In this document: positions 17,273 to 50,659 of the stretch, piece after piece | Layout of the letters: every line of letters starts with the position of its first letter | Position numbering within the stretch: the stretch's first letter is position 1 | Source: Alphaproteobacteria bacterium | Lineage (GTDB): Bacteria; Pseudomonadota; Alphaproteobacteria; Rickettsiales; SXRF01 | Assembly: GCA_025362975.1 (NCBI GenBank) | Contig: JANYES010000018.1 | Location: 1-64,000, forward strand | DNA length: 64,000 nt | Reading direction: 5' to 3' | Notes under the pieces: generated by a model | The model's input: only the letters and a program-made list of their open reading frames with translations | Told to the model about the DNA's origin: nothing | Database searches by the model: none | Position numbers and translations under genes: made by a program

Positions 17273-17285
17273 GCTCGGTTGTTCT

Positions 17286-20407: not shown

Positions 20408-20422
20408 CAGGGAGAAAAACGT

Positions 20423-20788
20423 ATGAATTGCACTTACCGCCGATCCTTACTATGCCTTGGGTTGCTGATCATGATGATGGGATTCGTTGGAAACGATGCC
20501 TATGCCGGAACTGCTACAGGCGGATCACTGCCTTACGAGTCATGGCTTACCAGCCTCAGGGACAGCGTGACCGGGCCGGTTGCTTTCACATTGTCCATTA
20601 TCGGCATTGTGGTAGCCGGTGGAGTCCTGATTTTTGGGGGTGATCTCCATGGATTTTTCCGCACGTTGATTTTTCTGGTGCTGGTAATGGCGTTTTTAGT
20701 CGGAGCACAGAACATGATGACCACCTTCTTTGGTAATGCGGCGGTCATTGGCTGGGTAATTGATCCGACACCACTGCGCATTGCGTAA
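20423..20788 (+). CDS. trbC: Pilin TrbC (VirB2 family)
   Basis: A 121-aa pilin precursor. The signal peptide ends at AYA, before [20 protein letters not shown]. Two membrane helices follow ([16 protein letters not shown] and [18 protein letters not shown]). From memory, the mature core is very close to RP4 TrbC, which is cut at both ends and circularised by the TraF peptidase. A traF gene is present at 32114-32638. The C-terminal tail after [10 protein letters not shown] is shorter than in RP4. It forms the conjugative pilus. Confidence 0.93.
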
Positions 20789-20797
20789 GCTGCACTT

Positions 20798-21103
20798 ATG
20801 GTCTTACGCACCATTCCCATACGCCGGGCAGGCAATCGCCATAACCTCTTCATGGGCGGTGATCGTGAACTGGTGATGTTCTCAGGCCTGCTGGCTGGGG
20901 CATTGGTGTTCTCGGCTCAGGAATGGAAAGCAACCATTTTTGGAGTGTTTCTGTGGTTCACTTCCCTTTACCTGCTGCGGCTGATGGCAAAGTCTGATCC
21001 AAAGATGCGCCCTGTTTACATGCGTCACCGCCGTTACAAAGGTTATTATCCAGCACGCTCTACTCCCTTCCGGGAGAATAAAAAAGCACAAGGTAATCCC
21101 TAA
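20798..21103 (+). CDS. trbD: Mating-pore protein TrbD (VirB3 family)
   Basis: A 101-aa inner-membrane protein. The basic N-terminus (LRTIPIRRAGNRHNLFMGGD) is typical of VirB3/TrbD. Two membrane segments follow (LVMFSGLLAGALVFSA and FGVFLWFTSLYLLRLM), with a basic C-terminus. It works with TrbE at the base of the pore. The stop overlaps the trbE start. Confidence 0.9.
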   Translation: MVLRTIPIRRAGNRHNLFMGGDRELVMFSGLLAGALVFSAQEWKATIFGVFLWFTSLYLLRLMAKSDPKMRPVYMRHRRYKGYYPARSTPFRENKKAQGNP

Positions 21104-23652: not shown

Positions 23653-24353
23653 AACCATTTTTTGTAAAACCCGCGCAAGCTGAGATGTCTAAAAATCCCT
23701 ATCTGAACGCCAGGAAATACTGGAATGAACATACGCAGGGGTTAATGCATGCCACCCGCATGTGGCAGGCCGTTGCCCTTATCAGCCTCATGATCACATT
23801 AGCCGCCGTTGGCGGTGCGGTGCATGTGGCCAGCCAGTCGAAATTCATTCCTTATGTCATTGAAGTGGACAAGCTGGGCCAGAACATGGCGGTGGCACCG
23901 GCGCAGGTGGCCGCACTGGTTGACAGCCGAGTCGTACATGCCAGTCTTGCCGCTTTCATGAGCAACGCACGGCTGGTTACTCCGGACATCGCTCTCCAGC
24001 GAAAAGCCATATTTTCTGTTTATGCCATGATGAATGCCGACGATCCAGCAGCGTCCAAAATGACGGCGTGGCTGAATGGCAATGAAGCCAGCAATCCCTT
24101 CCATCGTGCTGCTAAGGAAACCGTCGAAACAGAAATTGTTTCAATAATTCCGCAGTCGCCAGATACATGGCAAATCGAGTGGAACGAAAAGGTTTTTGAC
24201 CGCCAGGGAGCGCCCATTGGGCAGTCTTACCGAATGCGGGCACTGGCAACGGTAGCCATCGTTGCGCCCACATCTTCCACCTCTGAAGAGAAAATCCGGC
24301 AAAATCCTCTGGGAGTTTACGTGAAGGATTACAGCTGGTCGAAACAAAACTGA
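23649..24353 (+). CDS. trbF: Mating-pore protein TrbF (VirB8 family)
   Basis: A 234-aa protein. A cytoplasmic N-terminus (NPYLNARKYWNEHTQGLM) is followed by one membrane helix (LISLMITLAAVGGAVHVA) and a periplasmic VirB8-like domain (FIPYVIEVDKLGQ, WQIEWNEKVFDRQG). It nucleates assembly of the inner-membrane complex. The start overlaps the trbE stop by four bases. Confidence 0.93.
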   Translation: MKPFFVKPAQAEMSKNPYLNARKYWNEHTQGLMHATRMWQAVALISLMITLAAVGGAVHVASQSKFIPYVIEVDKLGQNMAVAPAQVAALVDSRVVHASLAAFMSNARLVTPDIALQRKAIFSVYAMMNADDPAASKMTAWLNGNEASNPFHRAAKETVETEIVSIIPQSPDTWQIEWNEKVFDRQGAPIGQSYRMRALATVAIVAPTSSTSEEKIRQNPLGVYVKDYSWSKQN

Positions 24354-24367
24354 TAGGGAGATTATAC

Positions 24368-25258
24368 ATGAAAGAATACCTCGCTGTTTTATTCCTAGTG
24401 CTTTCTCCCATGGCTGCTATAGCCGCACCCCAAGAGAATTTAGACGATAAATATTTCTCCGGGCAAGACCCTGAACTGACACCTCAGGAGCAGGAAGGGC
24501 TTGATATTGCCAAGGAGTGGAAAGCGGCGGGTGGTAGAGAGCTTAAACCCACGCCCGGCCCTGACGGTTCCGTGAGTTTCCTGTTCGGTGCAACGCAGCC
24601 AAGTATCGTGTGCGCGGTGCTTCAGGTCTGTGACATTGAGTTACAGGCTGGTGAGCAGGTAAATTCCATCCATCTGGGGGACGCAGCACGCTGGACGGTC
24701 GAACCGGCCATCACCGGATATGGTGGCGCTGAAGTCCAGCATTTGATCATCAAGCCAATGGATGTGGGCTTGAATACGTCGCTGATCGTTACCACGAACC
24801 GCCGTACCTATCATTTGCGCCTGCGCTCAACTCATCACGATTTCATGCCGCGTGTGACCTTCGTTTATATGGAGGAAACCCGTAAGAAATGGGAGGCGGC
24901 AAAGGCTGCGAACGAACAGGAACATGAAAAGAAGATTATTCCTGAAACCGGCGAATATCTGGGCAATCTTTATTTCCATTATCAGATTGAGGGAAAAAGC
25001 AGCTGGAAGCCGTTGCGCGTCTATAATGACGGCAAAAAAACTATCCTAGAGATGCCAGCCACGATGGCACAGACGGAAGCCCCGACCTTGCTGGTCGTTC
25101 GTAAAGACGGCGGCGTATTTTCTGACGATGACCAGGTGATGGTCAATTATCGCATCCAGAATGACCGCTACATCGTTGATATCCTGTTTGATAAAGCCAT
25201 TCTTATCGCCGGAGTGGGTGACAGCCAGGATCGTGTCACCATCACGAGAGAACGCTAA
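24368..25258 (+). CDS. trbG: Mating-pore protein TrbG (VirB9 family)
   Basis: A 296-aa exported protein with a signal peptide ending near AIAA. The N-terminal VirB9 domain begins with PGPDGSVSFLFGATQPSIVC. A C-terminal domain follows (NLYFHYQIEGKSSWKPLRVY, VNYRIQNDRYIVD). It forms the outer-membrane core with TrbH and TrbI. RBS GGGAG precedes the ATG. Confidence 0.93.
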   Translation: MKEYLAVLFLVLSPMAAIAAPQENLDDKYFSGQDPELTPQEQEGLDIAKEWKAAGGRELKPTPGPDGSVSFLFGATQPSIVCAVLQVCDIELQAGEQVNSIHLGDAARWTVEPAITGYGGAEVQHLIIKPMDVGLNTSLIVTTNRRTYHLRLRSTHHDFMPRVTFVYMEETRKKWEAAKAANEQEHEKKIIPETGEYLGNLYFHYQIEGKSSWKPLRVYNDGKKTILEMPATMAQTEAPTLLVVRKDGGVFSDDDQVMVNYRIQNDRYIVDILFDKAILIAGVGDSQDRVTITRER

Positions 25259-25259
25259 T

Positions 25260-25802
25260 ATGCAAAAAATCAGTATATCCGCCGTTGTTCTTGGACTTTT
25301 ATCCGCCTGTACTTCGCCCTATGGAAATTATACGACGATTTCGGAAGCATATAATGCGCAGATGGCAGATGATGCCGCTCAGGAACTGAGCGAATTGTAT
25401 CCGCCTGCTACCACGCACCTCATGGTATCGCAGCCTACGCCCGATGCATACGGAGTGGAGCTGGTCAAAAAGCTGCGCGAATATGGCTATGCCATAGAGA
25501 ATGGCGCTGATGTAAACAGTCCTGTTTCCACTACGGACGTATTTCGGGAGGTATCAAGTAGCAAGCCTGATCTGTCCAAAAACCATACGGATGCAAAACC
25601 ATCGGTATCGGTGCCTGTAATAAAGACAGCGGGTGCAGACAATGTGCAAGCTGGCAACAGATCGATTTTCTATATTGTAGATCAGATTGAAGCTGGGTTG
25701 TACCGGGTGACGATACGTATCGACTCCAAAGTTTTAAGCCGTGTGTATAGGGGTTCCAGCAAAGGCATACTTCCTGCCGGTTCATGGACTCGGAAGGAGT
25801 GA
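25260..25802 (+). CDS. trbH: Outer-membrane lipoprotein TrbH (VirB7-like role)
   Basis: A 180-aa lipoprotein with signal MQKISISAVVLGLLSAC (lipobox LSAC). The start ATG 25260-25262 is one base past the trbG stop. A longer frame from 25161 lies inside trbG and is rejected. The C-terminal half has IFYIVDQIEAGLYRVTIRID. Position between trbG and trbI, together with the lipobox, matches RP4 TrbH, which anchors the outer-membrane core. Confidence 0.87.
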   Translation: MQKISISAVVLGLLSACTSPYGNYTTISEAYNAQMADDAAQELSELYPPATTHLMVSQPTPDAYGVELVKKLREYGYAIENGADVNSPVSTTDVFREVSSSKPDLSKNHTDAKPSVSVPVIKTAGADNVQAGNRSIFYIVDQIEAGLYRVTIRIDSKVLSRVYRGSSKGILPAGSWTRKE

Positions 25803-25804
25803 TT

Positions 25805-27121
25805 ATGCCGGATACCAATAACGAAATGACCCCACCCCATATATCGCCTTCCGGACTTGGAAAGCGCTCCGGTGTCCGGCGCGTCAATAATCTGCCGCTC
25901 TATGTGGTAGGTGGGGGGCTTGCGGCATTTTTACTGCTTATCATGCTGGTCGCAATAGACCGCGCTCACAAGGCTCAGGGAAATGCGCAAGCCTTGCCTG
26001 AAAAGCATGGCGATTCCTTACAACTTGCCAAATCCATTACCGGTACTCAGACAGACGGTTTTATCCTCGCGGAAAATATCCCGCCGCCGAGTCCATCCCT
26101 GACGGTTCCGATAGCGTTACCGGATGATCTGGAAAAACCCCCACTGCCCAAGCGCCTTAAGGATTTTACAACCGCCGATCCGGATGCGGATCATATCAAA
26201 CAGCAAAAAATGCAGCTTTTTGAACATGCCGTCACTGGCAAAACCTCCGTGCCGATGCCTGAACTTAAAGCGCATGACGATATTAGTGCTAGCGATAAGC
26301 GCGAACAGACGTTGCAAAGAATTGATGACGCCAAACAGCAAATTGCGGTGGTACAGCAGGACGATGCCAATGCCACCTTTAAAGCCCGCCTTGCCCAGCT
26401 TCCGGGCGGTGGCGGTGGTTCAGGTCAGGAAGTCCCCAGCAGCCAGCGCAATAGCCTGAAACCATTCGATGCCAAAGATAAGAGTGACCGCTGGCAGCTC
26501 AATTCGCAGGTGCAAGCGCCATCGTCGCCTTATACGCTGCGTGCCGGGTTTGTCATTCCGGCGTCGCTTATTTCGGGGATCAACTCCGATTTGCCCGGCC
26601 AGATTATCGGCCAAATCAGCCAGAATGTCTATGACACCGCCACCGGCAAGTATCTGCTTCTTCCACAAGGGGCACGCCTTGTCGGCAGCTATGCGTCCGA
26701 TGTGGCTTATGGCCAGTCCCGCATCATGGTGGCATGGCAGCGTATTGTTTTTCCTGACGGGAAAACGCTAGATATAGGCGTAATGCCCGGAGCAGACGGT
26801 GCTGGTTATTCAGGCTTTCATGATCAGGTGGATAATCATTATCTGCGTATTTTCGGATCGGCGATATTGATGTCGGGCATTACAGCGGGCGTGGCGATAA
26901 GCCAGAATAACAACAGTAATGGCGGTCTCTATGCGCAACCCACGGCCAGTTCAGCTCTTAGCGAAGCCCTGGGCCAGCAACTGGGCAATGTGACCGCCCA
27001 GATGATCAGCAAAAACCTGAATATTTCCCCGACACTGGAAATCAGGCCAGGCTTTCGCTTCAACGTGATGTGCATCAAAGACCTCGTACTTACCAAACCT
27101 TATTCATCATTCGATTATTGA
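25805..27121 (+). CDS. trbI: Mating-pore protein TrbI (VirB10 family)
   Basis: A 438-aa protein from ATG 25805, which has GGAG at proper distance. An ATG at 25784 has no such site. The order is a cytoplasmic N-terminus, one membrane helix (LYVVGGGLAAFLLLIMLVAI), a Pro-rich periplasmic linker with a GGGGGSG stretch, and the C-terminal VirB10 barrel (LRAGFVIPASLISGINSDLP, LLLPQGARLVGSYASDVAYG). It bridges both membranes. Confidence 0.94.
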   Translation: MPDTNNEMTPPHISPSGLGKRSGVRRVNNLPLYVVGGGLAAFLLLIMLVAIDRAHKAQGNAQALPEKHGDSLQLAKSITGTQTDGFILAENIPPPSPSLTVPIALPDDLEKPPLPKRLKDFTTADPDADHIKQQKMQLFEHAVTGKTSVPMPELKAHDDISASDKREQTLQRIDDAKQQIAVVQQDDANATFKARLAQLPGGGGGSGQEVPSSQRNSLKPFDAKDKSDRWQLNSQVQAPSSPYTLRAGFVIPASLISGINSDLPGQIIGQISQNVYDTATGKYLLLPQGARLVGSYASDVAYGQSRIMVAWQRIVFPDGKTLDIGVMPGADGAGYSGFHDQVDNHYLRIFGSAILMSGITAGVAISQNNNSNGGLYAQPTASSALSEALGQQLGNVTAQMISKNLNISPTLEIRPGFRFNVMCIKDLVLTKPYSSFDY

Positions 27122-27136
27122 GGAGAGGGAGACTAT

Positions 27137-27907
27137 ATGAAACGCGTTCCAGCTTTTTTAGCCATTGCCGTCCTGTTTTACTCTATGGCGGCTACTGCCC
27201 AGATCGCTACCCTGGATGCAGCAAATATCGTTCAATCAACGATCAGTGCCCAGCAAGCCATTACTCAAACTGCACAACAGTTACAGCAATATCAGGCACA
27301 ATTGCAGCAACTCCAGAATCAGATTCAAAATACCGCCAATCCGGGCAGCTTCCAGTGGGACAACGCCAACGCGACCATTAATAACGTTCTGGCGACGGTC
27401 AACACGCTTAACACCTACCAAAGCCAGGCCGGGAGCATTGCCGCTTACTTAAGTAAATATTCCGATGCCAGCCAGTATCACACCACTTCCTGTATTGGCA
27501 ACGGCGGCTGTACCGGGGCACAAATCCAGCAGATAAACGCCAGCCAGTACACGGGATCAGATTCCCAGAAAACTGCGAACGACAATATGCAGCTCAACAT
27601 TAATGCCCAGCAACAGCAACTCCAAAGCGATGCTAATAATGTAGCCGTTTTGCAACAAAATGCCCAAGGCTCAACGGGGCAAATGCAGGCGTTGCAGGCA
27701 GCCAACCAGTTGGCTAGCAATCAGGCAGTTCAGCTGATGCAGATACGATCCCTGATGATAGCGCAGCAAACTGCCGAAGCTGTGCGAGCGGAAACCATTG
27801 TGGATCGGGAAGCACAACAGCAGGCGGCATCAGACGCTTTTATCGGCACCCAACCCACCACCAGCACGCCATACAATGTGCTTAGTTACGCAGGAGTATC
27901 CCGATGA
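27137..27907 (+). CDS. trbJ: Transfer protein TrbJ (VirB5-like)
   Basis: A 256-aa exported protein with a signal peptide ending at ATA. Very Gln-rich helices follow (QQLQQYQAQLQQLQNQIQN), typical of the TrbJ/VirB5 family of pilus-tip or minor pilus proteins. A disulfide-like pair (SCIGNGGC) sits mid-chain. The last residues, DAFIGTQPTTSTPYNVLSY, closely resemble the tail of the next gene product. The stop overlaps the trbK start by four bases. Confidence 0.9.
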   Translation: MKRVPAFLAIAVLFYSMAATAQIATLDAANIVQSTISAQQAITQTAQQLQQYQAQLQQLQNQIQNTANPGSFQWDNANATINNVLATVNTLNTYQSQAGSIAAYLSKYSDASQYHTTSCIGNGGCTGAQIQQINASQYTGSDSQKTANDNMQLNINAQQQQLQSDANNVAVLQQNAQGSTGQMQALQAANQLASNQAVQLMQIRSLMIAQQTAEAVRAETIVDREAQQQAASDAFIGTQPTTSTPYNVLSYAGVSR

Positions 27908-28104
27908 AATGGAGCTATATTCTCTTTGTTCTCTTTTCTATTTTAGCTCTCATAATCTATCTGTCGGCAGGTAAACAATCGCCTGTCGATCCTGATAGGG
28001 CCGCCAAGCAAAACACAGCGCATGATTCTTTTGTAGGAAGTGCGCCGACTGCCAGTAAACCCTACAATATACTCGATTACACCAAGCCAGCGGCGAAGCC
28101 ATGA
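27904..28104 (+). CDS. trbK: Small membrane protein in the trbK position (possible entry exclusion)
   Basis: A 66-aa protein with one N-terminal membrane helix (YILFVLFSILALIIYLSAG) and a tail DSFVGSAPTASKPYNILDY. It lies between trbJ and trbL with ATGA overlaps on both sides, as trbK does in RP4. RP4 TrbK is an entry-exclusion lipoprotein; this protein has no lipobox Cys. Its tail copies the C-terminus of TrbJ. Exclusion is inferred from position only. Confidence 0.7.
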   Translation: MKWSYILFVLFSILALIIYLSAGKQSPVDPDRAAKQNTAHDSFVGSAPTASKPYNILDYTKPAAKP

Positions 28105-29453
28105 CAAAAGCTCGCCGCATGGGAAACATCAGATGGCAGGTATTTCTATTTATCGCTGCGGTGCTTGTTTCTTTCAATAGTTTGGCGGCTGCTTCTTCCA
28201 GCAACATCCTGAACAATGTAACCGATCAGTTTCAGGCACAGGCGTCCAGCTGGGGTGGCATTATTACCGGCTATGCCACATGGTTATTCTGGGTACTTTG
28301 TACGATCAGCCTGGTATGGACGGGCGGGACGCTGGTTCTGAAACGTGCCGATATTGGCGAGTTTTTTGCTGAATTTATTCGCTTTTGCCTTTTCTTCGGA
28401 TTTTTTCTCTGGCTGCTGCAAAATGCCGCCGCCATCGGCATCGCCATTATCAATTCGCTTATTCAGATTGGTGCAAACGCCAGCCAGACAGGGGCGGCCA
28501 ATCCCTCCGCCGTTATGGATATTGGTTTCCAGATATTTTATAAAGTCATGCAACAGACCAGCGTATGGAGTCCGGTGGATAGTTTCATTGGCGCGGTGCT
28601 AGCGGGCATTATTCTTATCTGTATCGCGCTGATCGCCGCCAATATGACGATTATGCTCTGTTCGGCCTGGATTCTTCTCTATGGCGGTATCTTCTTCCTG
28701 GGCTTTGGTGGTTCCCGCTGGACATCGGACATTGCCATCCATTATTACAAAACGCTTCTTGGAATCGGTGTCAGCCTCATGGCGATGGTGTTGATGATCG
28801 GTATCGCCCAAAGTATCGTCACCAACTACTACAACAATATGAGTGCCGGTGTTCAGGTCAATGAAATCGCTACGATCATGGTGGTGGCGATTATCCTACT
28901 TCTTCTCGTTCACCGTGTTCCGGGCCTGATTTCCGGTGTGCTTACCGGTGCGACTATCGGTCATTCCGGGATAGGCGCATTCAGCGCCGGGGCTGCCGTA
29001 GGTGCCGCCAGTGTGGCCGCAGCCGTTGCGTCAACCAGCGGCGCAGTGGCAGCTGCGGGCGCTCATAATGTAGGCGGGGGCGGTCAGGCGATGAAAGCGG
29101 CTTTCCAAAGTGCCCAGCAGAATATGGCGAATAACCGCGATGCCGGTGCCAATTCGTCCAGCTCCTCTTCCGGAGGTCTTTCGGCAGCGATGGGAACCGG
29201 CAAAAGTTTCGTGGCCGATATGGGCAAAAGCCTGGCCAAGGGTGCTGGCAGTGCACTCAAGCAACCGTTAAGCGACAGGGCCAGTGATACGTTTTTAGGA
29301 CGGGTGGCAAACCATATCAGGAACGACATGGGCGGCAACGGCGAAGGCGGAACATCCCAGGCCTCCATGCCTAACTCTATCGGCGCGGCGGGTGATGGTA
29401 GCACAGGTAATGCCACAGATGAGATTGAGGCTTTCGTGAATAAAAACGCTTAA
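28101..29453 (+). CDS. trbL: Mating-pore membrane protein TrbL (VirB6 family)
   Basis: A 450-aa polytopic protein with a signal-like N-terminus and about six membrane helices between residues 45 and 290 (TGYATWLFWVLCTISLVWTG, LAGIILICIALIAANMTIML). A long Ala/Gly/Ser-rich C-terminal tail follows (SSSSSSGGLSAAMG). This architecture is standard for TrbL. It forms part of the inner-membrane channel. Confidence 0.94.
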   Translation: MTKARRMGNIRWQVFLFIAAVLVSFNSLAAASSSNILNNVTDQFQAQASSWGGIITGYATWLFWVLCTISLVWTGGTLVLKRADIGEFFAEFIRFCLFFGFFLWLLQNAAAIGIAIINSLIQIGANASQTGAANPSAVMDIGFQIFYKVMQQTSVWSPVDSFIGAVLAGIILICIALIAANMTIMLCSAWILLYGGIFFLGFGGSRWTSDIAIHYYKTLLGIGVSLMAMVLMIGIAQSIVTNYYNNMSAGVQVNEIATIMVVAIILLLLVHRVPGLISGVLTGATIGHSGIGAFSAGAAVGAASVAAAVASTSGAVAAAGAHNVGGGGQAMKAAFQSAQQNMANNRDAGANSSSSSSGGLSAAMGTGKSFVADMGKSLAKGAGSALKQPLSDRASDTFLGRVANHIRNDMGGNGEGGTSQASMPNSIGAAGDGSTGNATDEIEAFVNKNA

Positions 29454-30676: not shown

Positions 30677-30679
30677 GGC

Positions 30680-31507: not shown

Positions 31508-31519
31508 AGGTATTCTACA

Positions 31520-32023: not shown

Positions 32024-32113
32024 GAGTACTTACATTACGTTACTTTTCGCAGATCATACATGCAGATTCTTTAGAGTCTATTAATATGCGCCCTATAACG
32101 AGTTGTTTATAGG

Positions 32114-32638
32114 TCACCATGTCCATACGGGTCGGATAGCGCTGATAATAGTCGATTTATCCACCAGCCCAAAATACCTCGCATCGAACGATTTGGGATT
32201 ATAGTCGGACATCAGCAGAACGGAATGATCATCCAGAGTACCCATATCGGCTTCAATGGGGGAGAGGGGCCGTCCTTCCAAATCCTTATCCATCGGCTTG
32301 CTGTTCGGTAGCAATACGCCGTTGACGGACACGCCGATAGCAGACATTGCCACGCGATCATTTTTTGCTGCCAGAATTTTCTTGATCATATATCCGTAGC
32401 CACCCGGACAAAATCCCGCGCCTATATAGCCTCGTTCACGTGCCAGACGGAAAGCGACATTATCGGTGGGACAGAAAATAACCAGCGAACCTTTTGCAAT
32501 GCGGGCGTTGGTCATGAGATAAACGCCAACGGGATAGCTGGCAGTGCTATTGATTCGGACTCCGGCCTGTATCGCCACTATCACCAGCGCAATCAGACAG
32601 CCACCTGTCGTCAGGGTTATTTTCAGTGATCTTCTCAT
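32114..32638 (-). CDS. traF: Transfer peptidase TraF (S26 signal-peptidase family)
   Basis: A 174-aa protein with an N-terminal membrane helix (ITLTTGGCLIALVIVAIQAG). A Ser in NSTASYPVGVY (Ser34) and Lys86/87 in MIKKILA form the Ser-Lys dyad of S26 peptidases. In RP4, TraF circularises the TrbC pilin; a close TrbC is encoded here. The start overlaps the traG stop by four bases. Confidence 0.92.
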   Translation of the reverse strand: MRRSLKITLTTGGCLIALVIVAIQAGVRINSTASYPVGVYLMTNARIAKGSLVIFCPTDNVAFRLARERGYIGAGFCPGGYGYMIKKILAAKNDRVAMSAIGVSVNGVLLPNSKPMDKDLEGRPLSPIEADMGTLDDHSVLLMSDYNPKSFDARYFGLVDKSTIISAIRPVWTW

Positions 32639-34464
32639 GTCGTAATAAGCTTGTCTGTCAATTTTGGAGCCGGGACTTTGGAACGCTTCAGGAATTCAGG
32701 GTCCTGGAAATACAGCGGCTGCTCACCATAGATCGCAGGGAACCCGGCACAATAAATAACCATATGGCCCGGTTCCTGAATAAGGCCGTTATGATCCTTC
32801 TTCGGGCCGGGCATACGCATACTCTCATCGACGGTAAGCAATGGTCGTTGCACTTCCTGCATGGTGCGCGAAACCTGTCCGTGCATGGCACTGATGCGCT
32901 TGCCGCTGGTGGTAATCTGCTCTTTGACGATGGTGGTTTGTCCCGTCAGTTTGGACAGATGCTCTGCCGTTTCCAGCCGATTGGGCGGAAAGGCGATCTG
33001 GATATGGCAATTGGAGGTAATGCTTTCTTCCCTCCCATAACCGGATACGGAATTCTGCAATTGGTTGATATCCTGCACGATGATGTAACATTTGATGCCA
33101 TAACCGGCAACGAAAGCCAGGGACTCCTGCATGATTTCCAGTTTGCCGAGGCTGGGGAATTCGTCCAGCATCATGAGCAGCCGATGCTTGTAATGCGGTT
33201 TGTGTCGGCCATTAACGAACTCCATACGGTCGGCCAGAAGACGCAGAATCATATTGACGACCACGCGCACTAACGGACGAAGGCGGGCTTTATCGTTGGG
33301 CTGCGTCACAATATAGAGGCTGACCGGATTATGGTGGTTCATCAGGTCACGAATACGGAATTCCGATTTACTAACATTGCGGGCAACAATAGGATCGCGG
33401 TAAAGCGACAGGAAGGATTTTGTCGATGAAAGCACGCCATCGGCTTCTTCATCGGAACGATCCATCATATCCCTTCCTGTTGCGGCAATTACCGGATGGG
33501 GTTTATCATTCTTGTGGGGGTAGGTGGTCATTTCCTCCCATAAATCCTGTACCGGTCTTTCCGGAGTGGAAAACATAGCGTCCAGCGCGGATAAGTTGGC
33601 AACCCGCCCTTCCTGATGGGATTTATACAGCAGATGTAATATGGCTCCGACAATAAGCGACTGGGATGTTTTCTGCCAATGATCTACCAGTCCCTTGCCA
33701 TCGGGATCGACCAGCAATGTCGCCAGGTTCTGAACATCACCCACCTCATATTCCGTTCCAAGCCGGATTTCTTCCAGTGGGTTAAATCCGATACAGCCAG
33801 CCGGGCTGGCGGGATCGAAGCGCAACACTTTATGCCCGGCAGACTTCCTCCACCCGGCGCTCATTTCCCAAAGTTCGCCTTTCAGATCGAGAATGACGGC
33901 GCTTTCTCTCCAGTCCAGCAGTGTCGGAATCACCAGACCCACGCCTTTACCGCTTCTGGTCGGTGCAAAGCATAATATATGTTCAGGGCCGTTATGCTGG
34001 AGGTAATGATGGTGATGATCCTTATCCACCCATGCGCCGATATAGACGCCTTTTTTGTTAAGCAAGGAGGCAGCTTTAATATCGCTCCTGCCTGCCCAGC
34101 GTGCCGAGCCGTGCATGAACTCATGGGCTTTGGAACTATTGGATGACACGATAGACCGTAAAAAAGTAAGCATCATTAGCCCCGCCGAAAAGACAATTCC
34201 GACGGAAGCCGCCCTTTTTAACTGAAGCGGATAATCGTCATAATACTGGAAACTCCATTCCACGATCTTCCAGGGTGCATACAGATGGTAGAGTGAACCA
34301 CCAAGGATATCCTGATAGGCAAAGTCATGCGCAAACATCTGTGTAGCCGATGCCAGCCCCACCACATAGGAAGCAATAACGATGACGCGTTGAACGCTTC
34401 TGTCGGGTTGTCTTGCCGCTACGCTGATTTGCGGCCCAACCGCATTGTTGCGCTTCTCCGCCAA
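32635..34464 (-). CDS. traG: Type IV coupling protein TraG (VirD4 family)
   Basis: A 609-aa protein. Two N-terminal membrane helices (residues 25-45 and 85-105) are followed by Walker A PTRSGKGVG (168-176), FDPASPAGCIGFNPL, and Walker B LLMMLDEFPSLG near 445. It brings the relaxase-DNA complex to the pore. It abuts traI upstream without a gap and overlaps traF. Length and motifs are complete. Confidence 0.95.
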   Translation of the reverse strand: MAEKRNNAVGPQISVAARQPDRSVQRVIVIASYVVGLASATQMFAHDFAYQDILGGSLYHLYAPWKIVEWSFQYYDDYPLQLKRAASVGIVFSAGLMMLTFLRSIVSSNSSKAHEFMHGSARWAGRSDIKAASLLNKKGVYIGAWVDKDHHHHYLQHNGPEHILCFAPTRSGKGVGLVIPTLLDWRESAVILDLKGELWEMSAGWRKSAGHKVLRFDPASPAGCIGFNPLEEIRLGTEYEVGDVQNLATLLVDPDGKGLVDHWQKTSQSLIVGAILHLLYKSHQEGRVANLSALDAMFSTPERPVQDLWEEMTTYPHKNDKPHPVIAATGRDMMDRSDEEADGVLSSTKSFLSLYRDPIVARNVSKSEFRIRDLMNHHNPVSLYIVTQPNDKARLRPLVRVVVNMILRLLADRMEFVNGRHKPHYKHRLLMMLDEFPSLGKLEIMQESLAFVAGYGIKCYIIVQDINQLQNSVSGYGREESITSNCHIQIAFPPNRLETAEHLSKLTGQTTIVKEQITTSGKRISAMHGQVSRTMQEVQRPLLTVDESMRMPGPKKDHNGLIQEPGHMVIYCAGFPAIYGEQPLYFQDPEFLKRSKVPAPKLTDKLITT

Positions 34465-36300
34465 TTATATTCTCCTTCCGCGAGTGCGGACGATACCCAG
34501 CGAGTTTATATCGACCTGGCTGCCTATTTTCAGGCGCTGGGCCTGGCGCACCGTTTTATCGTCAATGGGCAGTACCAGCATTTCCGATTGTGTTTGTAGC
34601 AGCATAAGGGTTTTACCTGCCAACTGGCGCAGTCCCGCAAAGGAGTGCGTACCGGCATCGGCGTCGCCATAGCGCCGATGCGGCAGTATATCGATTCCTT
34701 TGCTGCGTGTATCGGTCCTTTCGGCGATATAAAGTGCTGCTACGTCCGGAATTGACGTACTGGCGCGGCTAGTCGTTAGAGCCTGCCGCTGTGCTTCCAT
34801 GTCCGGCGCAGCAAAGACGATGTTCAGCTTTGCGTTGGCAGCGACTTCTACCACCTGCCTGCGAAACGTGTCCGTGCCGTTAATGGCAAGTTTCTGCCCG
34901 AATCGCTGTACGCCCATCCTGAGCGCAGATTCGACTACCTGCTGGCTGACATGCTCCGCCAGGCGCAATACTTTGCCGTCATCACGCAGCACCGTTTGCG
35001 CCACCTGATAATGAATAGTGCCGCGCTTTGTCACCGCCTCGATCTTTGCGCCGGAGAGGTAATTCACCCGGTCTATACCTTCACCGGCAATGGAATTGAC
35101 CTTGGCCTGTCCTCTATCGTAGCGGTGGCGCAATACTTCCAGTGCCTGTGCATTGCCTTCCCAGGCCTTGGCTTTCAGCCAGTCATACCAGACCACATGT
35201 TTGCCTTTCTCATAGACCTTGCGCTGATCCGCCTGATAATCCTGCCTGATGGCACGCATTTCTTTCATGAATCCATCGGAAACCGAACTATAGAGCAGGC
35301 TTTTAGCCAGCCTGCCTTTAGCCAGGGTAATGGCAGTGCGCTGCGTATTAGCCATTTTCTTGGCAGTCTCTATGCGCCTGTCTCTCCTCTGTTTTGCCCG
35401 ATCACGCAACACCGCGTGGCGTTGCTTATGTTGCAATTTCTCCTGCTGGTATAATGACCATAGGGGACGTGTATCGATGCGGGAGGCCACCGGCTTTACC
35501 TCATAACGCGCTGCCACCTTTATCTCATGTGCAGGTGCTGGCTGGAATACTCCCAGTCTTTTCTCCAACGCGCACATGGAAAATGCCCGTTCTATGGAGC
35601 TTGCTTTTACAGCGATCCCCTGAGCGTCTCTGATCACCAGCCCGTTACCCCGTTCCACTAATTGCAGGCCGCTGCGGGCAAGCACCCGGTGCAATTCTTC
35701 CCACGAGGAGGCAGCACGTAGTTCCGGCAGGCAGCCGCGCTTGATCCAGCCGATCAGGCTTTCAATGCCTGCTGCCATTTCCATATCATGCGCCTTGGCT
35801 TCCCCCGGTGTCCGGTGGGGTACATGGTTGTCGATCTCCAACCCGAATTCACGCTCCAGCCTGATGCATAAATCGGCAAAGATTTTGTAATCGTTATAGG
35901 GCTGACGGGTGGTCAATTTGACGGGATGCACTTTATTGATGGCCATATGCATATGCACATGATCGGTATCATGATGCACGGCACTGACGCGCTGGTGGTC
36001 TTCATACCCCAGCGCTGCACACAACCTGTCTTCGATAGACCTTAGCATCTCAGCCGATGGCTGTTCGCCTTCCCGGAAGGATACCAGCAGATGATAGGTC
36101 TTATCGACCAGGGAACGCTTATTTTGTTCCTGTATATTTTCTGCCTCTATTGCCGCCCAGGTCGGATGGTCACTATGGCAGTTGGTAATCCGGATCGTAC
36201 CCACCCGCTCATTCCGGTCCATGGCATTGGTGATGTAATTCACCAGCCCGGAAAAACTGCTCTTATTAAGCTTGCGGATAGGGATGTGCTTTACGATCAT
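34465..36300 (-). CDS. traI: Relaxase TraI (MOBP family)
   Basis: A 611-aa protein from ATG 36298-36300, one base past the traJ stop. The longer frame from 36366 runs inside traJ. Motif I contains Ser14-Ser15 and the catalytic Tyr22 (SSFSGLVNYITN). Motif III, HHDTDHVHMH, carries His110, His114, His116 and His118. These positions equal those known for RP4 TraI. The C-terminal part (about 440-530) resembles an LPD7-type domain. It nicks oriT and leads the strand into the recipient. Confidence 0.94.
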   Translation of the reverse strand: MIVKHIPIRKLNKSSFSGLVNYITNAMDRNERVGTIRITNCHSDHPTWAAIEAENIQEQNKRSLVDKTYHLLVSFREGEQPSAEMLRSIEDRLCAALGYEDHQRVSAVHHDTDHVHMHMAINKVHPVKLTTRQPYNDYKIFADLCIRLEREFGLEIDNHVPHRTPGEAKAHDMEMAAGIESLIGWIKRGCLPELRAASSWEELHRVLARSGLQLVERGNGLVIRDAQGIAVKASSIERAFSMCALEKRLGVFQPAPAHEIKVAARYEVKPVASRIDTRPLWSLYQQEKLQHKQRHAVLRDRAKQRRDRRIETAKKMANTQRTAITLAKGRLAKSLLYSSVSDGFMKEMRAIRQDYQADQRKVYEKGKHVVWYDWLKAKAWEGNAQALEVLRHRYDRGQAKVNSIAGEGIDRVNYLSGAKIEAVTKRGTIHYQVAQTVLRDDGKVLRLAEHVSQQVVESALRMGVQRFGQKLAINGTDTFRRQVVEVAANAKLNIVFAAPDMEAQRQALTTSRASTSIPDVAALYIAERTDTRSKGIDILPHRRYGDADAGTHSFAGLRQLAGKTLMLLQTQSEMLVLPIDDKTVRQAQRLKIGSQVDINSLGIVRTRGRRI

Positions 36301-36301
36301 T

Positions 36302-36658
36302 TCAGACCTTCTTCGCTGCTTCCAGCAGCAAACCCTGCGCCGATTGAATCTGATCCAGCAGGTCATTAATCTTTGGCATGACCTGATCCTTGCCCATGGA
36401 TTTTAACCTTTCGTCATTGGTCAGAAGCATCTTTAAAAGCCCTCCCAGCCGTCCCAAATCGCCGTTAACTTTCGCCAGTTCGTTGACGGCTTTGTTGTCT
36501 AAAATGCCCTTGGGTTTGTATTGCAATCCGAGGGTGCGCAGGTAGGCGGCAATGGATAGGCCACAGGTCGCCGCATTGCTTTTGATGTCGGTCATTTCGC
36601 CGTCAAGCACCGGCACATGGATTTGCTTTATCCTGCGTCTGCTGGGCTTCTTTTTCAT
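36302..36658 (-). CDS. traJ: oriT-binding accessory protein TraJ
   Basis: A 118-aa protein from ATG 36656-36658, preceded by GGAGGAAC. The N-terminus is basic (MKKKPSRRRIKQIHVPVLDG). A ribbon-helix-helix-like segment (CGLSIAAYLRTLGLQYKP) and helical remainder (LAKVNGDLGRLGGLLKMLL) follow, as in MobC/TraJ proteins. It should bind the 20-bp palindrome beside the nick site 73 bp upstream and recruit TraI. Confidence 0.88.
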   Translation of the reverse strand: MKKKPSRRRIKQIHVPVLDGEMTDIKSNAATCGLSIAAYLRTLGLQYKPKGILDNKAVNELAKVNGDLGRLGGLLKMLLTNDERLKSMGKDQVMPKINDLLDQIQSAQGLLLEAAKKV

Positions 36659-36730
36659 GTTCCTCCAGGCGGTAGCCGGTGCCCCGCAGGGCGGGATACG
36701 CGTTGAGCACAAAGTGCGAATAAGAAAAAC

Positions 36731-36765
36731 GTAATGTTAGCTAACATTACATATCCTGCCCGCTA
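36731..36765 (+). other. Origin of transfer (oriT): TraJ palindrome plus nick site
   Basis: GTAATGTTAGCTAACATTAC (36731-36750) is a perfect 20-bp palindrome. Directly after it comes ATATCCTGCCCG, which fits the RP4-family nick consensus YATCCTG/Y, with the nick predicted after G36758 on the plus strand. The arrangement palindrome-nick-leading region, beside traJ, is that of RP4. The transferred strand would enter rightward from 36759, with ardC among the first genes to arrive. Confidence 0.87.
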
Positions 36766-36858
36766 ATCTTCACTGACTTTACTCGATTATCCCCACTCGT
36801 GCAAGCTGCCATTATTTGTGTCTTTTTAGCGTAATGGGATACCTATAAATGGGTTGAT

Positions 36859-36909
36859 CTATACCCGACATATTGCCGCTAAAAAGCGGTCAATTTATGT
36901 CGGGTATAG
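36859..36909. repeat. Nested inverted repeat 100 bp into the leading region
   Basis: The outer arms CTATACCCGACATA (36859-36872) and TATGTCGGGTATAG (36896-36909) are perfectly complementary over 14 bp. Inside lies a second hairpin, CCGCT-AAAA-AGCGG (36876-36889). It follows the stop of the DUF6876 gene (36970) on the minus strand, so it could end that operon. It could equally act on the transferred single strand. Confidence 0.8.
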
Positions 36910-36969
36910 TTATGGACTGGACAAAAAAATACCCACCCGGAAACTTGTCCCAGATGGGGTATCAGTCGG

Positions 36970-37332
36970 CTAATATTCGGTCGGCAACATGATGACGTTA
37001 TCGGTGAAATAAAAACCAATCCCATCCAATGGGAAGTCGGTATATTCAATCGGCTTGATAAACACCACGCGATCATTTCCGTCATCGCAGGTGAGGGTAG
37101 CGGTCTTATCAAAATTAACCTTTAGCCGCCAAACCTGAAATTCCTCAGCGGCAATTTTCGGGTCGGTTTGAGCGAAAGCGATCTCGTCAAGCAGCCAGTA
37201 AGCACCACCGGTTTCGGCAATATATTGGGCACCGTCCGTGTATAGGATTTTGCGCACGAGACCATGGCGATACCATTGTTCGCTGCCGGTGAAATGCGAC
37301 AGCTCTGCTTTCGTGATGTTTTTATGCGTCAT
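36970..37332 (-). CDS. DUF6876-family protein
   Basis: A 120-aa protein. ELSHFTGSEQWYRHGLVRK, YIAETGGAYWLLDEIAFAQ and GIGFYFTDNVIMLP are typical of a small family I recall as DUF6876, common on plasmids and ICEs. Function unknown. GGAG precedes the start. It is the last gene of a six-gene leading-region set reading toward oriT, and it is followed by the nested inverted repeat. Confidence 0.75.
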   Translation of the reverse strand: MTHKNITKAELSHFTGSEQWYRHGLVRKILYTDGAQYIAETGGAYWLLDEIAFAQTDPKIAAEEFQVWRLKVNFDKTATLTCDDGNDRVVFIKPIEYTDFPLDGIGFYFTDNVIMLPTEY

Positions 37333-37528
37333 AATCTTCAGCTCCTTTGTTGTGTGACCCCTTGGGCGGAGGCGACGGTCAAAAAGCTGAAGCTTTAAGG
37401 CTGACTGTCCACCCTCAACACGGGAGCGAAGCGAAGGAGCGGGCGGAGGGTTTACTGGCAGACGGCTTCAGCCAAAACCGAGTCATATCCGCCATATAGG
37501 TACACATTAGGGGGTGATGCTTGAAACT
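37333..37528. other. Gap in the leading-region gene set
   Basis: These 196 bases hold no supported gene. A short GGGAGCGAAGCGAAGGAGCG segment, flanked by CCCTC and GAGGG, could fold. The 11-mer GCGACGGTCAA occurs at 37372-37382 and again at 39520-39530. I cannot assign a function. Confidence 0.35.
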
Positions 37529-37831
37529 TTAAAATAAGGCGAGCTGATCGCCTTCTTCCTCGTCAGCATCATCCGGGCAGGATTTGGCACCCATAAGGGC
37601 CAGCACCAGCCTCCTGGCATATTCTTCCACGCTCGGTGCCGCCACTACCTCGTGCATAGGTGAAAAATGACTGCGGTATCCGGTTTCACTGACCGGAATC
37701 CGGCGGCGCGGTTCGTATGGGCTGGTAAATTCAAAATGGGCGTAGTCGGCGGCAATAAAATATGCGGGCCGGTAATGCACCACCATGTCCTGTGCCTCAA
37801 CGGTAATAGTAAAATTCATGTTCTGCTGCAT
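37529..37831 (-). CDS. Hypothetical leading-region protein
   Basis: A 100-aa protein from ATG 37829-37831 with GGAG upstream. The longer start at 37852 would overlap the previous gene. The N-terminus MQQNMNFTITVEAQDMVVHY is beta-like, followed by FEFTSPYEPRRRIPVSETGY and an acidic end (DDADEEEGDQLALF). The terminal LALF resembles the end of clamp-binding or accessory tails but is not proof. No family recognised. Confidence 0.6.
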   Translation of the reverse strand: MQQNMNFTITVEAQDMVVHYRPAYFIAADYAHFEFTSPYEPRRRIPVSETGYRSHFSPMHEVVAAPSVEEYARRLVLALMGAKSCPDDADEEEGDQLALF

Positions 37832-37835
37832 GGCA

Positions 37836-38048
37836 TCACGCTCCTTTTTCAAAGAGGGTCGGTTGCAGGTAGCGCCCTGATGCCGTGCGCTCGTCCACCG
37901 GGCGGTGATCCTCGCGCAACGTCTCGAACAATGCTATTTGCGTAGCATGGGCAGCGCAGGCTGCGGCCCGTTGTGCCCGGCGAAGCTCCAGGATGTCTTT
38001 CCAAAGGTAATGTTTGCCATCGATGGCAATGAAGGGGGAGCGAGTCAT
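37836..38048 (-). CDS. Hypothetical leading-region protein
   Basis: A 70-aa protein from ATG 38046-38048; a GTG at 38049-38051 overlaps the upstream stop and is also possible. The chain has FIAIDGKHYLWKDILELRRA, an Ala-rich helix (AQRAAACAAHATQIALFETL) and YLQPTLFEKGA. It sits between two other small genes with overlaps or gaps of a few bases. Function unknown. Confidence 0.58.
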   Translation of the reverse strand: MTRSPFIAIDGKHYLWKDILELRRAQRAAACAAHATQIALFETLREDHRPVDERTASGRYLQPTLFEKGA

Positions 38049-38050
38049 CA

Positions 38051-38281: not shown

Positions 38282-38284
38282 GGT

Positions 38285-39178
38285 CTATGCTCCCGCCTGT
38301 GATGATTGATAGGAATGCAGGTGATCGGCAGCTTTCTGCGCATGGCTGGCAGCGGTGAAGATTGCCCGTTTGTCGTCCTTCAGGACTTTGAGCCATGATG
38401 CAACATAGGCGGCGTGATCCTCACGGGTCTCCGGCGTGATGCCAAGGTCGGCGCACAGGAAGGCAGCACCGATTTCTGCCACCAGTTCTTCCATGGCATA
38501 ACCGGCATCGGCAAAGCGCTTACGGCCAAAGTCGCGGTTAAGACGGGTTTCATGGCGTGTCCAGTGCGTCATTTCATGGGCCAGCGTGGCATAATAGCTT
38601 TCGCCATCGCGAAAGGTCGGAAACTCTGGCATCTGCACGATGTCCTGAGAAGGCATGTAATAGGCCTGACCTCCGCCATGCTTGATGGTGGCTCTGGTTG
38701 CGGCAAAGAAGCGTTCCGCACTGTCCAGACGCTGAGTATCCTTGTTGATCGGTGCAACGGTTGCGTAAAAATGGTTGGGCAATCCATCCACCTGCTCGGC
38801 ATTGAATACCGTGTATCCTTTCATGAAAGGGATAGTGGTTTCCACATCCTCGCCCTTATCGTCGGTGCCGGTTTTCTTAAAGGTATCGGCATAGACCACC
38901 AGCGAGCCTTTCTCGCCTTTCTTGACCTGCCCACCAAGCTCGGTCGCCTGCTTATACGTCACCCATAAGGGGCTGTTAAAGCCGGATTCCATAGCGGAAG
39001 CCCAGAGCATCAGTACATTGACGCCACGATAGGCTTTGCCTCCGGCACGTAAGGGGCGGGATATGTGCCCTGCCGCATGGCCGGATTGCCAGGGTTGCAG
39101 CCATGTCAGGTTGCCGTGCTCCAGATCGGCAATGATTTTGTTGGTCACTTTGGAATAAACGTCGGGTTTCGTGTTCAT
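38285..39178 (-). CDS. ardC: Antirestriction protein ArdC
   Basis: A 297-aa protein from ATG 39176-39178, preceded by GGAG. The frame continues upstream to 39373 but lacks support there. The N-terminal ssDNA-binding domain is DVYSKVTNKIIADLEHGNLT, then WLQPWQSG and YRGVNVLMLW. The C-terminal zincin-like domain has HEMTHW (HExxH) with a downstream Glu in EELVAEIGAAF. ArdC protects entering DNA from restriction. Its location in the leading region fits that role. Confidence 0.92.
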   Translation of the reverse strand: MNTKPDVYSKVTNKIIADLEHGNLTWLQPWQSGHAAGHISRPLRAGGKAYRGVNVLMLWASAMESGFNSPLWVTYKQATELGGQVKKGEKGSLVVYADTFKKTGTDDKGEDVETTIPFMKGYTVFNAEQVDGLPNHFYATVAPINKDTQRLDSAERFFAATRATIKHGGGQAYYMPSQDIVQMPEFPTFRDGESYYATLAHEMTHWTRHETRLNRDFGRKRFADAGYAMEELVAEIGAAFLCADLGITPETREDHAAYVASWLKVLKDDKRAIFTAASHAQKAADHLHSYQSSQAGA

Positions 39179-39233
39179 ATGCAGGCTCCTTTTGGTTGCT
39201 GGGCGGGCACGAAGCCCGCCCAGGAGATGCTGA

Positions 39234-39440
39234 TTATTTGGTTTCTGATGCTGCACGCATGGTAAGGCGGCCATCGAGCGGTATGCCTTCCAGCTGGATG
39301 TTGAAGCCTTTGCCATCCTTGTGTGCCCAGGCGGCTCCCATGCGTGTCCAGAATCCTTTCTGGCCTTCTTCACCGCGCACCTGATAGACGATGTGGGTGG
39401 GGGCTTTGCTGTTGGTGGTTTGTGTGTCTTCGTTGCTCAT
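39234..39440 (-). CDS. Hypothetical small protein upstream of ardC
   Basis: A 68-aa protein from ATG 39438-39440 with GGAGA upstream. The chain has THIVYQVRGEEGQKGFWTRM and GAAWAHKDGKGFNIQLEGIP, then LDGRLTMR. I recall similar short proteins beside ardC on mobile elements. Function unknown. It is the first gene of the leading-region set. Confidence 0.68.
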   Translation of the reverse strand: MSNEDTQTTNSKAPTHIVYQVRGEEGQKGFWTRMGAAWAHKDGKGFNIQLEGIPLDGRLTMRAASETK

Positions 39441-47486: not shown

Positions 47487-47527
47487 ATTCAGGAAACTGA
47501 TACGTAATTTAAGGCTGGGGAAAAAAT

Positions 47528-49426: not shown

Positions 49427-50659
49427 TTATTGCATTGTTTCGAGCTGCTTATTTGCAGCCTTTAATTTGGGTTTAGCGGTTGTTTTCTTTACTGGTTTAG
49501 GTTTACGAACGTTAATAGCTGATGCATCCAGCGTATTTTTGATGTGCGAGGCATAAAATTTCTCGATCATTTCCACGCTGGTTCGGCAATTTTTGGCGAT
49601 TTGATAAATATCAGCTCCTTCCATCAGGCGCATGCAAACGTAAGTGTGCCGGAGGCTGTAAGCAGTGCGGCGATTGCCATCACGGTCAAACTTTAAATTA
49701 AGTTCGTCCAGGATCGTATTGAATAATTCGCGTTGTACCTTACCAAAAATAACATCGCTTTGTTCTGCGGTTGGTTTTGCACTATGGCGCTTCCGCAATC
49801 GTTCAAAGGGCATGACCGCGCCGATCATACTCTTACAGTATCCTACACCGCGCTTGCCGCGCACTTCAATTTCGAGGATGCGTTCGCCTGTTGCTTCATC
49901 AGTAATGATGGCAACATCTCGAAATTGTAGACGGCCAGCTTCGTCTGGCCTTAGGCCGGTATTTGCCATGAAGAGAACATAGTCATGCAGTTGTTCGCAT
50001 GCCTTTTTCCAACGTGGATTTTTTGGATTCTTTGCGCGTTCGCGTGTTGCTTCGTATAACTGCTTATACTCAGCAGGAGAAAACCACGCCCTGTGCGTGA
50101 TTTTCCCAGAGGATTTATACGGTGGCGATAAATCCGGTATGTAGGCTATCCAGCCGTGACGCTGGCCTGCTTTTAATACATGCCGCAATATAATGATTTC
50201 CTTGTGCAGCGTACTCCGGGACGGGCGTTTTGGTTCGCCTGTTTTTTTATCTTTGCGTGATGTGGCGCGGTGGATACGGTAGTCCTGAACCATGCCCGGT
50301 GTAATTTCAGAAAGAATCTTATCACCAAAGAAGGGTAAGAGGTGAACCCTGAGTATGAGGGCAAAGCCCGCCACATATTTCGCGTTTCGTTCACCCGCTG
50401 TGATTATCTCATATTCATTAAGAAACACCTCGGAAGCTTGTTTAAAGGTCTTGCCGACTTTAAGTTGTCCGGCGCGGCTTTTGCCTTTGAGGCCGAGATA
50501 CCAGTCTTCGGCAAAGTCCTTTGCATGGGAGAGGCTTTCTTCCTTTGTAGACACTCGCCAGTTTTTACCATTGAGATAGGTTGAGCATTGCCAATTTCCG
50601 CTGTTCTCGCGGCGGTAAACGTGGAGCTTGCCGCCCATCAATTCATGATGCTCTGCCAT
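49427..50659 (-). CDS. int: Tyrosine recombinase (ICE integrase)
   Basis: A 410-aa protein. The N-terminal arm- and core-binding domains are at residues 1-180. The catalytic part has Arg237 (NTGLRPDEAG), Arg337-His338 (AYSLRHTY) and the nucleophile Tyr369 (EKFYASH). A basic C-terminal tail (KPKPVKKTTAKPKLK) follows. It lies between a complete tRNA-Leu and a tRNA-Leu 5' half, the usual attachment setting. It should integrate and excise the element. Confidence 0.93.
   Translation of the reverse strand: MAEHHELMGGKLHVYRRENSGNWQCSTYLNGKNWRVSTKEESLSHAKDFAEDWYLGLKGKSRAGQLKVGKTFKQASEVFLNEYEIITAGERNAKYVAGFALILRVHLLPFFGDKILSEITPGMVQDYRIHRATSRKDKKTGEPKRPSRSTLHKEIIILRHVLKAGQRHGWIAYIPDLSPPYKSSGKITHRAWFSPAEYKQLYEATRERAKNPKNPRWKKACEQLHDYVLFMANTGLRPDEAGRLQFRDVAIITDEATGERILEIEVRGKRGVGYCKSMIGAVMPFERLRKRHSAKPTAEQSDVIFGKVQRELFNTILDELNLKFDRDGNRRTAYSLRHTYVCMRLMEGADIYQIAKNCRTSVEMIEKFYASHIKNTLDASAINVRKPKPVKKTTAKPKLKAANKQLETMQ

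What the first reader, a model, noticed from the sequence alone, without database searches (positions are those of the whole stretch)
36731..36765. Intact RP4-type oriT with perfect TraJ palindrome
A perfect 20-bp palindrome lies directly beside ATATCCTG/CCCG, next to traJ/traI whose catalytic residues match RP4 in position. The nick strand predicts that ardC and its neighbours enter first.
Basis: partly seen in the sequence, partly recalled or inferred. Interest (0 to 1): 0.68.

Follow-up and report, generated by a model that had tools for sequence, protein, structure and literature searches.

The report
Transfer origin shared with defence islands
The flagged stretch is very probably the start-of-transfer site of a chromosomal conjugative element, and near-copies of it sit as pairs facing each other in three other islands of the same genome that lack the cutting enzyme, suggesting they ride along with such elements.

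Summary
36731-36750 is a perfect 20-bp palindrome followed by A-TATCCTG|CCC (nick predicted between G36758 and C36759), beside traJ and traI. TraI has Y22, S74 and H116 at the IncP positions. Across 14 aligned sites (10 distinct) 8 of 10 palindrome pairs change on both sides. So it is very probably the oriT of a tra/trb conjugative element. TraK was not found, and the palindrome is compact, unlike IncP's spaced repeat.

The larger result lies outside the window. The genome holds eight such sites but only two relaxases of this family. Six sites lie in three islands beside tRNA genes, with recombinases (one recognised by eye only) and no relaxase found; two islands carry a lone traJ. Each island has two oriTs on opposite strands, facing each other across the cargo (Zorya type I; a set with MlaA/MlaC; a type IIG restriction enzyme). 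In two islands tRNA-derived repeats enclose both oriTs. I found no such pair in the other genomes searched, all by patterns built on this oriT type.

Best reading: relaxase-less mobilizable islands moved in trans by the resident elements. The facing pair looks like a new variant; its purpose is inferred only.

The parts
36731..36750 (+). 20-bp perfect palindrome, predicted TraJ-binding site
   Evidence: covariation across relatives
36751..36761 (+). nick core ATATCCTG|CCC, nick predicted between G36758 and C36759
   Evidence: motif YATCCTGCCC in all 8 sites of the genome
36667..36724 (+). conserved traJ-side block AGGCGGTAGCC...GTTGAG(36702)...GCGAATAAG(36716-36724), kept also in copies without traJ (its 5' part varies)
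36302..36658 (-). traJ (ATG at 36658; longer TTG ORF to 36712)
   Evidence: PF21983 E 7e-18; NCBIfam TraJ 120 bits, cut-off 134
34465..36300 (-). traI relaxase, MOBP type, Y22/S74/H116 (longer ORF to 36366)
32635..34464 (-). traG coupling protein
32114..32638 (-). traF peptidase
19439..29453 (+). trb mating-pair genes (TrbB-like ATPase, TrbC, TrbE/CagE, VirB8-like, CagX, TrbH, TrbI, TrbL; 27137-27907 has no Trb match)
36859..36909 (+). strong stem-loop 100 nt into the leading region, function unknown
36932..36958 (-). terminator-like hairpin after the leading genes
   Evidence: consensus match; 7 such sites in the stretch, 4.2 expected
36970..37332 (-). DUF6876 protein, first leading-region gene; not found in the C3 element
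37529..37852 (-). 107-aa ORF, shared with the second element of the genome (77% identity)
38285..39373 (-). ArdC-like antirestriction protein, leading region
49427..50659 (-). putative tyrosine recombinase at the right end of the element (matches under the curated cut-offs)
   Evidence: 45-bp repeat 49342-49386 / 50797-50841 at 89%

Best explanation
The site is the oriT of an integrated tra/trb conjugative element. TraJ, probably as a dimer, binds the palindrome; TraI is guided to the abutting TATCCTG|CCC and cuts the + strand between 36758 and 36759, joining Y22 to the 5' phosphate of C36759; the + strand is led by that end through TraG and the Trb channel, so DUF6876, the 107-aa ORF and ArdC go in first. 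Shown: sequence anatomy, homology, covariation. Inferred: binding, cutting, direction. The same oriT type is carried by three islands of this genome in which no relaxase was found; they most likely excise with their own recombinases and are cut and exported in trans by this element or by the second tra element on contig C3. In each island two oriTs face each other across the cargo; in the excised circle either strand could then be sent, in both cases cargo first and the att-end segment last. The confidence given is for oriT plus transfer in trans; for the purpose of the pair it is about 0.35.
For: Anatomy; families; catalytic residues; IncP oriT similarity (79% over 62 bp, E 5e-9). Covariation: 8 of 10 pairs changed on both sides and 94% of cells paired, each reached by 0 of 500 shuffles (the measure 'further pair types' was reached by 24 of 500); slid versions 30-53% paired. 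Eight places in the genome by similarity and by exact motif; 2 PF03432 relaxases, both in tra elements, none of PF08751 or PF07514; 4 TraJ. Three pairs on single contigs, all facing: C16 139155+/147744-, C20 19389+/28110-, C23 3169+/7556-. Repeats of the tRNA 3' end enclose both oriTs in two islands: 13 bp exact, and 27 bp with 1 mismatch; sizes 11,965 and 11,066 bp. Within pairs the -112..+3 block is only 68-78% identical and the next 120 bases 29-33% ungapped, yet YATCCTGCCC, GCGAATAAG and GTTGAG are in all 8.
Against: No experiment. TraK not found. Genome is a 28-contig assembly with estimated contamination 3.56%. Left end of the window's element is off the contig. No right att repeat for the tRNA-Pro island: no exact 12-base match in 40 kb, none of 14-30 bases with 1-6 mismatches in 24 kb. 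The tRNA-Met island's recombinase is a serine recombinase, an unusual partner for a tRNA repeat, and that repeat is only 13 bp. Its left oriT has a palindrome one base short and its right one a broken small upstream repeat. The tRNA-Gly island's 280-aa recombinase looks short and was recognised by eye; Pfam gave nothing at 0.01. Facing pairs were seen in this genome only; a Pseudomonadales locus with lone traJ has one oriT in 35 kb. Relatives were found by patterns that include the nick motif, so its constancy there is partly by construction.
Confidence: 0.8

Rival explanations
1. The window site is a working oriT, but the second oriT of each island is a leftover from earlier elements stacked at the same tRNA, without function.
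For: Pair members differ by 22-32%; one palindrome is a base short; other genomes show no second site on the same contig.
Against: Nick motif, GCGAATAAG and GTTGAG are present in all six island sites; 3 of 3 pairs face inward (1 in 64 if orientations were random, my arithmetic, small sample); only one att pair per island in the two islands where att repeats were found; no second TraJ match in L026 or L027 and none in L028 at E 1e-4 (tblastn).
Confidence: 0.25
2. The island sites are TraJ operators that switch cargo genes when a conjugative element is active, not transfer origins.
For: Island palindromes are conserved; two islands encode TraJ.
Against: The relaxase motif YATCCTGCCC beyond the palindrome is present in every copy of this genome; the right-hand site lies after the last cargo gene in the Zorya island.
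Confidence: 0.05
3. The facing sites are decoys by which islands, two of which carry anti-invader systems, titrate TraJ/TraI and hamper the conjugative elements.
For: Zorya type I and a type IIG restriction enzyme are the cargo of two islands.
Against: In the third island no defence family showed in Pfam for the 13 of its ORFs scanned (only one of them went to PADLOC, with weak matches, best E 0.0016); two islands have Pfam-recognised recombinases and two have att repeats, as expected of travellers.
Confidence: 0.07
4. The window palindrome and motif are a chance pairing.
For: Each part alone is not rare in the window.
Against: Eight sites, covariation, gene context.
Confidence: 0.01

Closest known systems
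oriT and relaxosome of IncP plasmids (RP4/RK2; here pBS228, NC_008357)
   Same: TATCCTG|CCC motif, inverted repeat beside it, GTTGAG...GCGAATAAG block, gene order traJ-traI-coupling protein-traF, Y22/S74/H116
   Different: Compact 20-bp perfect palindrome instead of a spaced repeat; no traK/traL/traM found; integrated element; ArdC on the leading side
iOriT elements (integrated mobilizable elements with an oriT and no relaxase), as defined in PMC11389934 (passages seen)
   Same: Recombinase, att repeats (two of three islands), oriT, no relaxase found
   Different: Two oriTs facing each other per island; two islands keep their own traJ
[quoted passage not shown] known here through passages of PMC5714925, PMC6561031, PMC11448139, PMC12388829)
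   Same: Two oriTs in one integrated element, said to be recognised by one relaxase and usable interchangeably (PMC5714925)
   Different: ICEclc's relaxase is of the MOBH family and its own; here MOBP, supplied in trans. Strand placement in ICEclc was not checked
SGI1-type mobilizable islands (start of abstract of PMC9299015)
   Same: Islands moved by a helper's machinery
   Different: SGI1 has its own mobilization proteins MpsA/MpsB and a mobilization module unrelated to that of its helper; here the island oriTs resemble the helper's

Membership tests
IncP/RP4-type oriT | YATCCTG|CC nick motif beside an inverted repeat | tested here: met
IncP/RP4-type oriT | adjacent TraJ gene and a repeat that evolves as a symmetric binding site | tested here: met
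   (NCBIfam TraJ 120 bits against cut-off 134)
IncP/RP4-type oriT | MOBP TraI with Y22, S74, H116 | tested here: met
   the catalytic role of these residues is recalled
IncP/RP4-type oriT | TraK gene and its site on the leading side | tested here: not met
   gene: tblastn with pBS228 TraK, none at E 1; its DNA site was not tested. So filed as a variant, not as RP4 itself
IncP/RP4-type oriT | strand-specific nicking by TraI with TraJ | not testable with these tools
   needs purified proteins
Integrative conjugative element | relaxase, coupling protein and mating-pair genes together | tested here: met
Integrative conjugative element | integrase and both attachment sites | tested here: inconclusive
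   weak recombinase match; left end off the contig; 45-bp repeat on the right
iOriT mobilizable island | oriT present, relaxase absent | tested here: met
   no PF03432, PF08751 or PF07514 match on C20, C23 or at C16:139-148 kb; other relaxase families not searched genome-wide
iOriT mobilizable island | recombinase and att repeats | tested here: inconclusive
   Recombinases by Pfam in 2 of 3 islands, by eye in the third; att repeats in 2 of 3
iOriT mobilizable island | moved in trans by a helper | not testable with these tools
   mating needed
Dual-oriT element (ICEclc) | two oriTs recognised by one relaxase | tested here: inconclusive
   same motif in both members of each pair; recognition not shown

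The most novel reading that the evidence does not exclude
The facing oriT pair is a working device: both strands of the excised island are cut and sent, cargo first, so that two complementary strands can meet in the recipient and become double-stranded without primer synthesis, letting small relaxase-less defence islands spread on any resident conjugative element of this type.
Probability: 0.12. Interest if true: 0.75.

Novelty: new variant of a known kind. Interest (0 to 1): 0.5.

Why it matters
Relaxase-less mobilizable islands are thought to be common but hard to spot, because oriTs are short and mostly unknown (PMC11389934, passages). Here one recognised oriT exposes a small network in one genome: two conjugative elements and three islands, two of them with anti-invader systems as cargo, that should all travel on the same kind of machinery. 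The facing pairs allow a clear test: does an island use one strand, the other, or both?

Tried and rejected
Chance origin of the palindrome: rejected by context and covariation; the simulation is a weak control, since only about two palindromes arose in it. A conserved fold-back of the nick region onto an upstream GGGCAGGAT copy (suggested): complement of 6 or more bases in 10 of 19 sites, of which two (C3 and G010a) were measured from a misplaced anchor inside the palindrome; mean 5.9 against 4.2 shuffled; absent in several sites; not claimed. Relatives among viral contigs: none. Plasmid relatives of 30236-39400: none by megablast. The G010 site on C24 first looked like an orphan; it lies beside a truncated traI. 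G014 has an oriT with traJ and no TraI match in a 3-kb locus nor in 17 kb, but its contig ends 7.5 kb beyond the site, so a partner could not be sought further. Of the loose order-level hits (8 of 131 genomes) I kept G000 and G010 and set aside six genomes whose sites show no palindrome by eye. The Chloroflexi hit L046 was set aside as chance (1 of 10 pairs). In one search I gave 14 sites and left out the left site of the tRNA-Met island (19 bp), the IncP, Nitrosomonas, Mailhella and G281 sites (spaced repeats), the second G519 site, L046, and copies of sites already given. ORFs given to Pfam, neighbours included: 10 of the 14 listed for L026, 15 of 36 for L027, 13 of them inside the island, 5 of 31 for L028; the rest were not scanned.

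Papers: listings (19 papers); passages of PMC11448139, PMC5714925, PMC6561031, PMC11389934, PMC12696120, PMC12388829; PMC11541004 searched for five terms with no hit, so statements on strand and early expression of leading-region genes are recalled. Searches aimed at paired, inverted or relaxase-less oriTs in print were made; apart from ICEclc, and from listed papers that I did not open, I saw no integrated island described with a facing oriT pair.

Full report
What was claimed. A perfect 20-bp palindrome beside ATATCCTG/CCCG at 36731-36765, next to traJ/traI, taken as an RP4-type oriT with ardC entering first.

Check. The palindrome GTAATGTTAGCTAACATTAC is at 36731-36750 and ATATCCTGCCCG follows. 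Neither part alone is remarkable: 4 perfect 20-bp palindromes lie in the window and the octamer with CC nearby occurs 6 times. The simulated control for their joint occurrence is weak. Upstream of the nick lies a block, AGGCGGTAGCC...GTTGAG...GCGAATAAG (36667-36724), with 79% identity over 62 bp to the oriT stretch of the IncP plasmid pBS228.

Genes. On the - strand: traJ (NikA-like, E 7e-18), traI (MOBP relaxase), traG, traF; on the + strand a trb set at 19-29 kb. TraI read from 36300 has Y22, VSF at 73-75 (S74) and HHDTDxxHxH from 109 (H116), at the same positions as pBS228 TraI. TraK, which pBS228 encodes on the other side of oriT, was not found.

Conservation. An exact pattern scan of the genome contigs (one genome for each of 84,980 species) gave 9 stretches: Geobacteraceae, Methylococcaceae, Mailhella (2), Alphaproteobacteria (2), Nitrosomonas eutropha, Pseudomonadales, and one Chloroflexi match judged chance. 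The pattern contained the nick motif and GCGAATAAG, so their presence there is by construction; the palindrome arms, apart from the last bases, were free. Aligned on the nick, 14 palindromes (10 distinct) show changes on both sides at 8 of 10 pairs, 17 such cells against 5.4 in shuffles, and 94% of cells paired against 30-53% when slid; 'further pair types' was less clear, reached by 24 of 500 shuffles. This is what a symmetric binding site for a TraJ dimer should show. The counts ignore shared descent.

Leading region. With the + strand cut at 36758/36759, the strand leads into 36759 and up. The first genes, DUF6876, a 107-aa ORF and ArdC, all lie on the - strand, so the incoming strand is their template (recalled as typical of leading regions). 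A terminator-like hairpin follows them at 36958-36932. The ORF and ArdC are shared with a second tra element on contig C3 (ArdC 90%, ORF 77% identity; 82% DNA identity over 1806 bp); DUF6876 is not. In the Mailhella and Methylococcaceae loci an ArdC relative (35-37% identity) lies on the traG side instead, so 'ArdC first' is a feature of these two elements rather than of the oriT type.

Beyond the window. The genome (3.26 Mb, 28 contigs; window = C16:1-64000) has eight places similar to the window's oriT, all with an exact AACATTACAYATCCTGC. It has two PF03432 relaxases, no PF08751 or PF07514 relaxase and four TraJ. Two sites belong to tra elements: the window's and C3:80046. The other six form three pairs, each on one contig, each facing inward. 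(1) C16 139-148 kb: tRNA-Met, serine recombinase, lone traJ, oriT+, Zorya type I ZorABCD, oriT-, a 260-aa ORF, att repeat of 13 bp. (2) C20 19-28 kb: tRNA-Gly, 117-aa ORF, lone traJ, oriT+, two-component system, MlaA, MlaC, DUF347, methyltransferase, TPR proteins, sulfotransferase, oriT-, a 280-aa ORF that looks like a tyrosine recombinase to the eye, att repeat of 27 bp with 1 mismatch. (3) C23 3-8 kb: tRNA-Pro, tyrosine integrase, oriT+, two ORFs and a type IIG restriction-methyltransferase, oriT-; right end not found. The first two islands measure 11,965 and 11,066 bp, with oriTs 1.1-2.3 kb from the ends.

Why I think the pairs matter. They sit in three islands with different tRNAs, recombinases and cargo. 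Pair members are 68-78% identical over -112..+3 and unlike beyond, so the doubling is not recent; yet the nick motif, GCGAATAAG and GTTGAG are present in all eight sites. All three pairs face inward, 1 in 64 under random orientation (my arithmetic), a small sample. The short repeat before GAATAAG is GAGCACAAAGTGC in the window's element and in the left sites of islands 1 and 2, and GAGTGCGAAGCGC in C3 and in island 3's left site. This hints at which element helps which island, but whole-block identities do not settle it: island 3's right site is nearer the window (69%) than C3 (65%).

Rarity. Sites of this type occurred in 3 of 16 genomes of the family, 2 of 385 of the class and 2 of 398 of the phylum by a two-gap pattern, each count including the own genome and each by a different pattern. 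No genome other than the own one showed two sites on one contig (in one search the only other genome with two was G010, on different contigs). The same-genus genome G010 matches contig JANYBV010000051 (Alphaproteobacteria bacterium 336R), so the window most likely comes from an uncultured alphaproteobacterium.

Comparison. The window oriT is a compact-palindrome relative of the IncP oriT without a detected TraK. The islands fit the iOriT class of PMC11389934 (passages). Two oriTs in one integrated element are reported for ICEclc (passages), whose relaxase is of the MOBH family. Relaxase-less islands with facing pairs of a MOBP oriT I did not meet in my searches, which cover open-licence papers only.

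Verdict. The finding is correct and by itself fairly ordinary. Used as a probe, it reveals an unusual, testable arrangement. The function of the pair is unproven.

Noticed in passing
window 36859-36909: Strong stem-loop (14-bp perfect outer arms; -21.8 kcal/mol as single-stranded DNA for 36841-36930, z -6.6) 100 nt into the leading region; role unknown.
   Followed up: partly
window 49342-49386 and 50797-50841: A 45-bp part of the tRNA-Leu gene is repeated at 89% identity on the far side of a recombinase gene, possibly marking the right end of the element.
   Followed up: partly
window 42622-46215 and 46410-49252: MmeI-like type IIG protein and a Cap4-nuclease protein followed by an AAA ATPase: likely defence genes on the leading side of the element.
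   Followed up: no
window 1107-17723: Metal-related cargo: efflux pump parts, P-type ATPase with MerR regulator, FTR1 permease, OprB porin, Metal_resist protein.
   Followed up: no
G010:C24:202577 (L078 10407-13298): Serine recombinase (33% identity to the tRNA-Met island's) at tRNA-Met, an oriT with GCAATGTTGGCCAACATTGC, and a relaxase N-terminal ORF of 202 aa near the contig end.
   Followed up: partly
G521:C1:912922 (L047, L091): Lone traJ beside a single oriT with another palindrome in a Pseudomonadales genome, no traI match in 35 kb.
   Followed up: partly
window 36690-36770: As single-stranded DNA the nick region can pair with an upstream GGCGGGATA; such copies exist in only part of the relatives.
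   Followed up: partly
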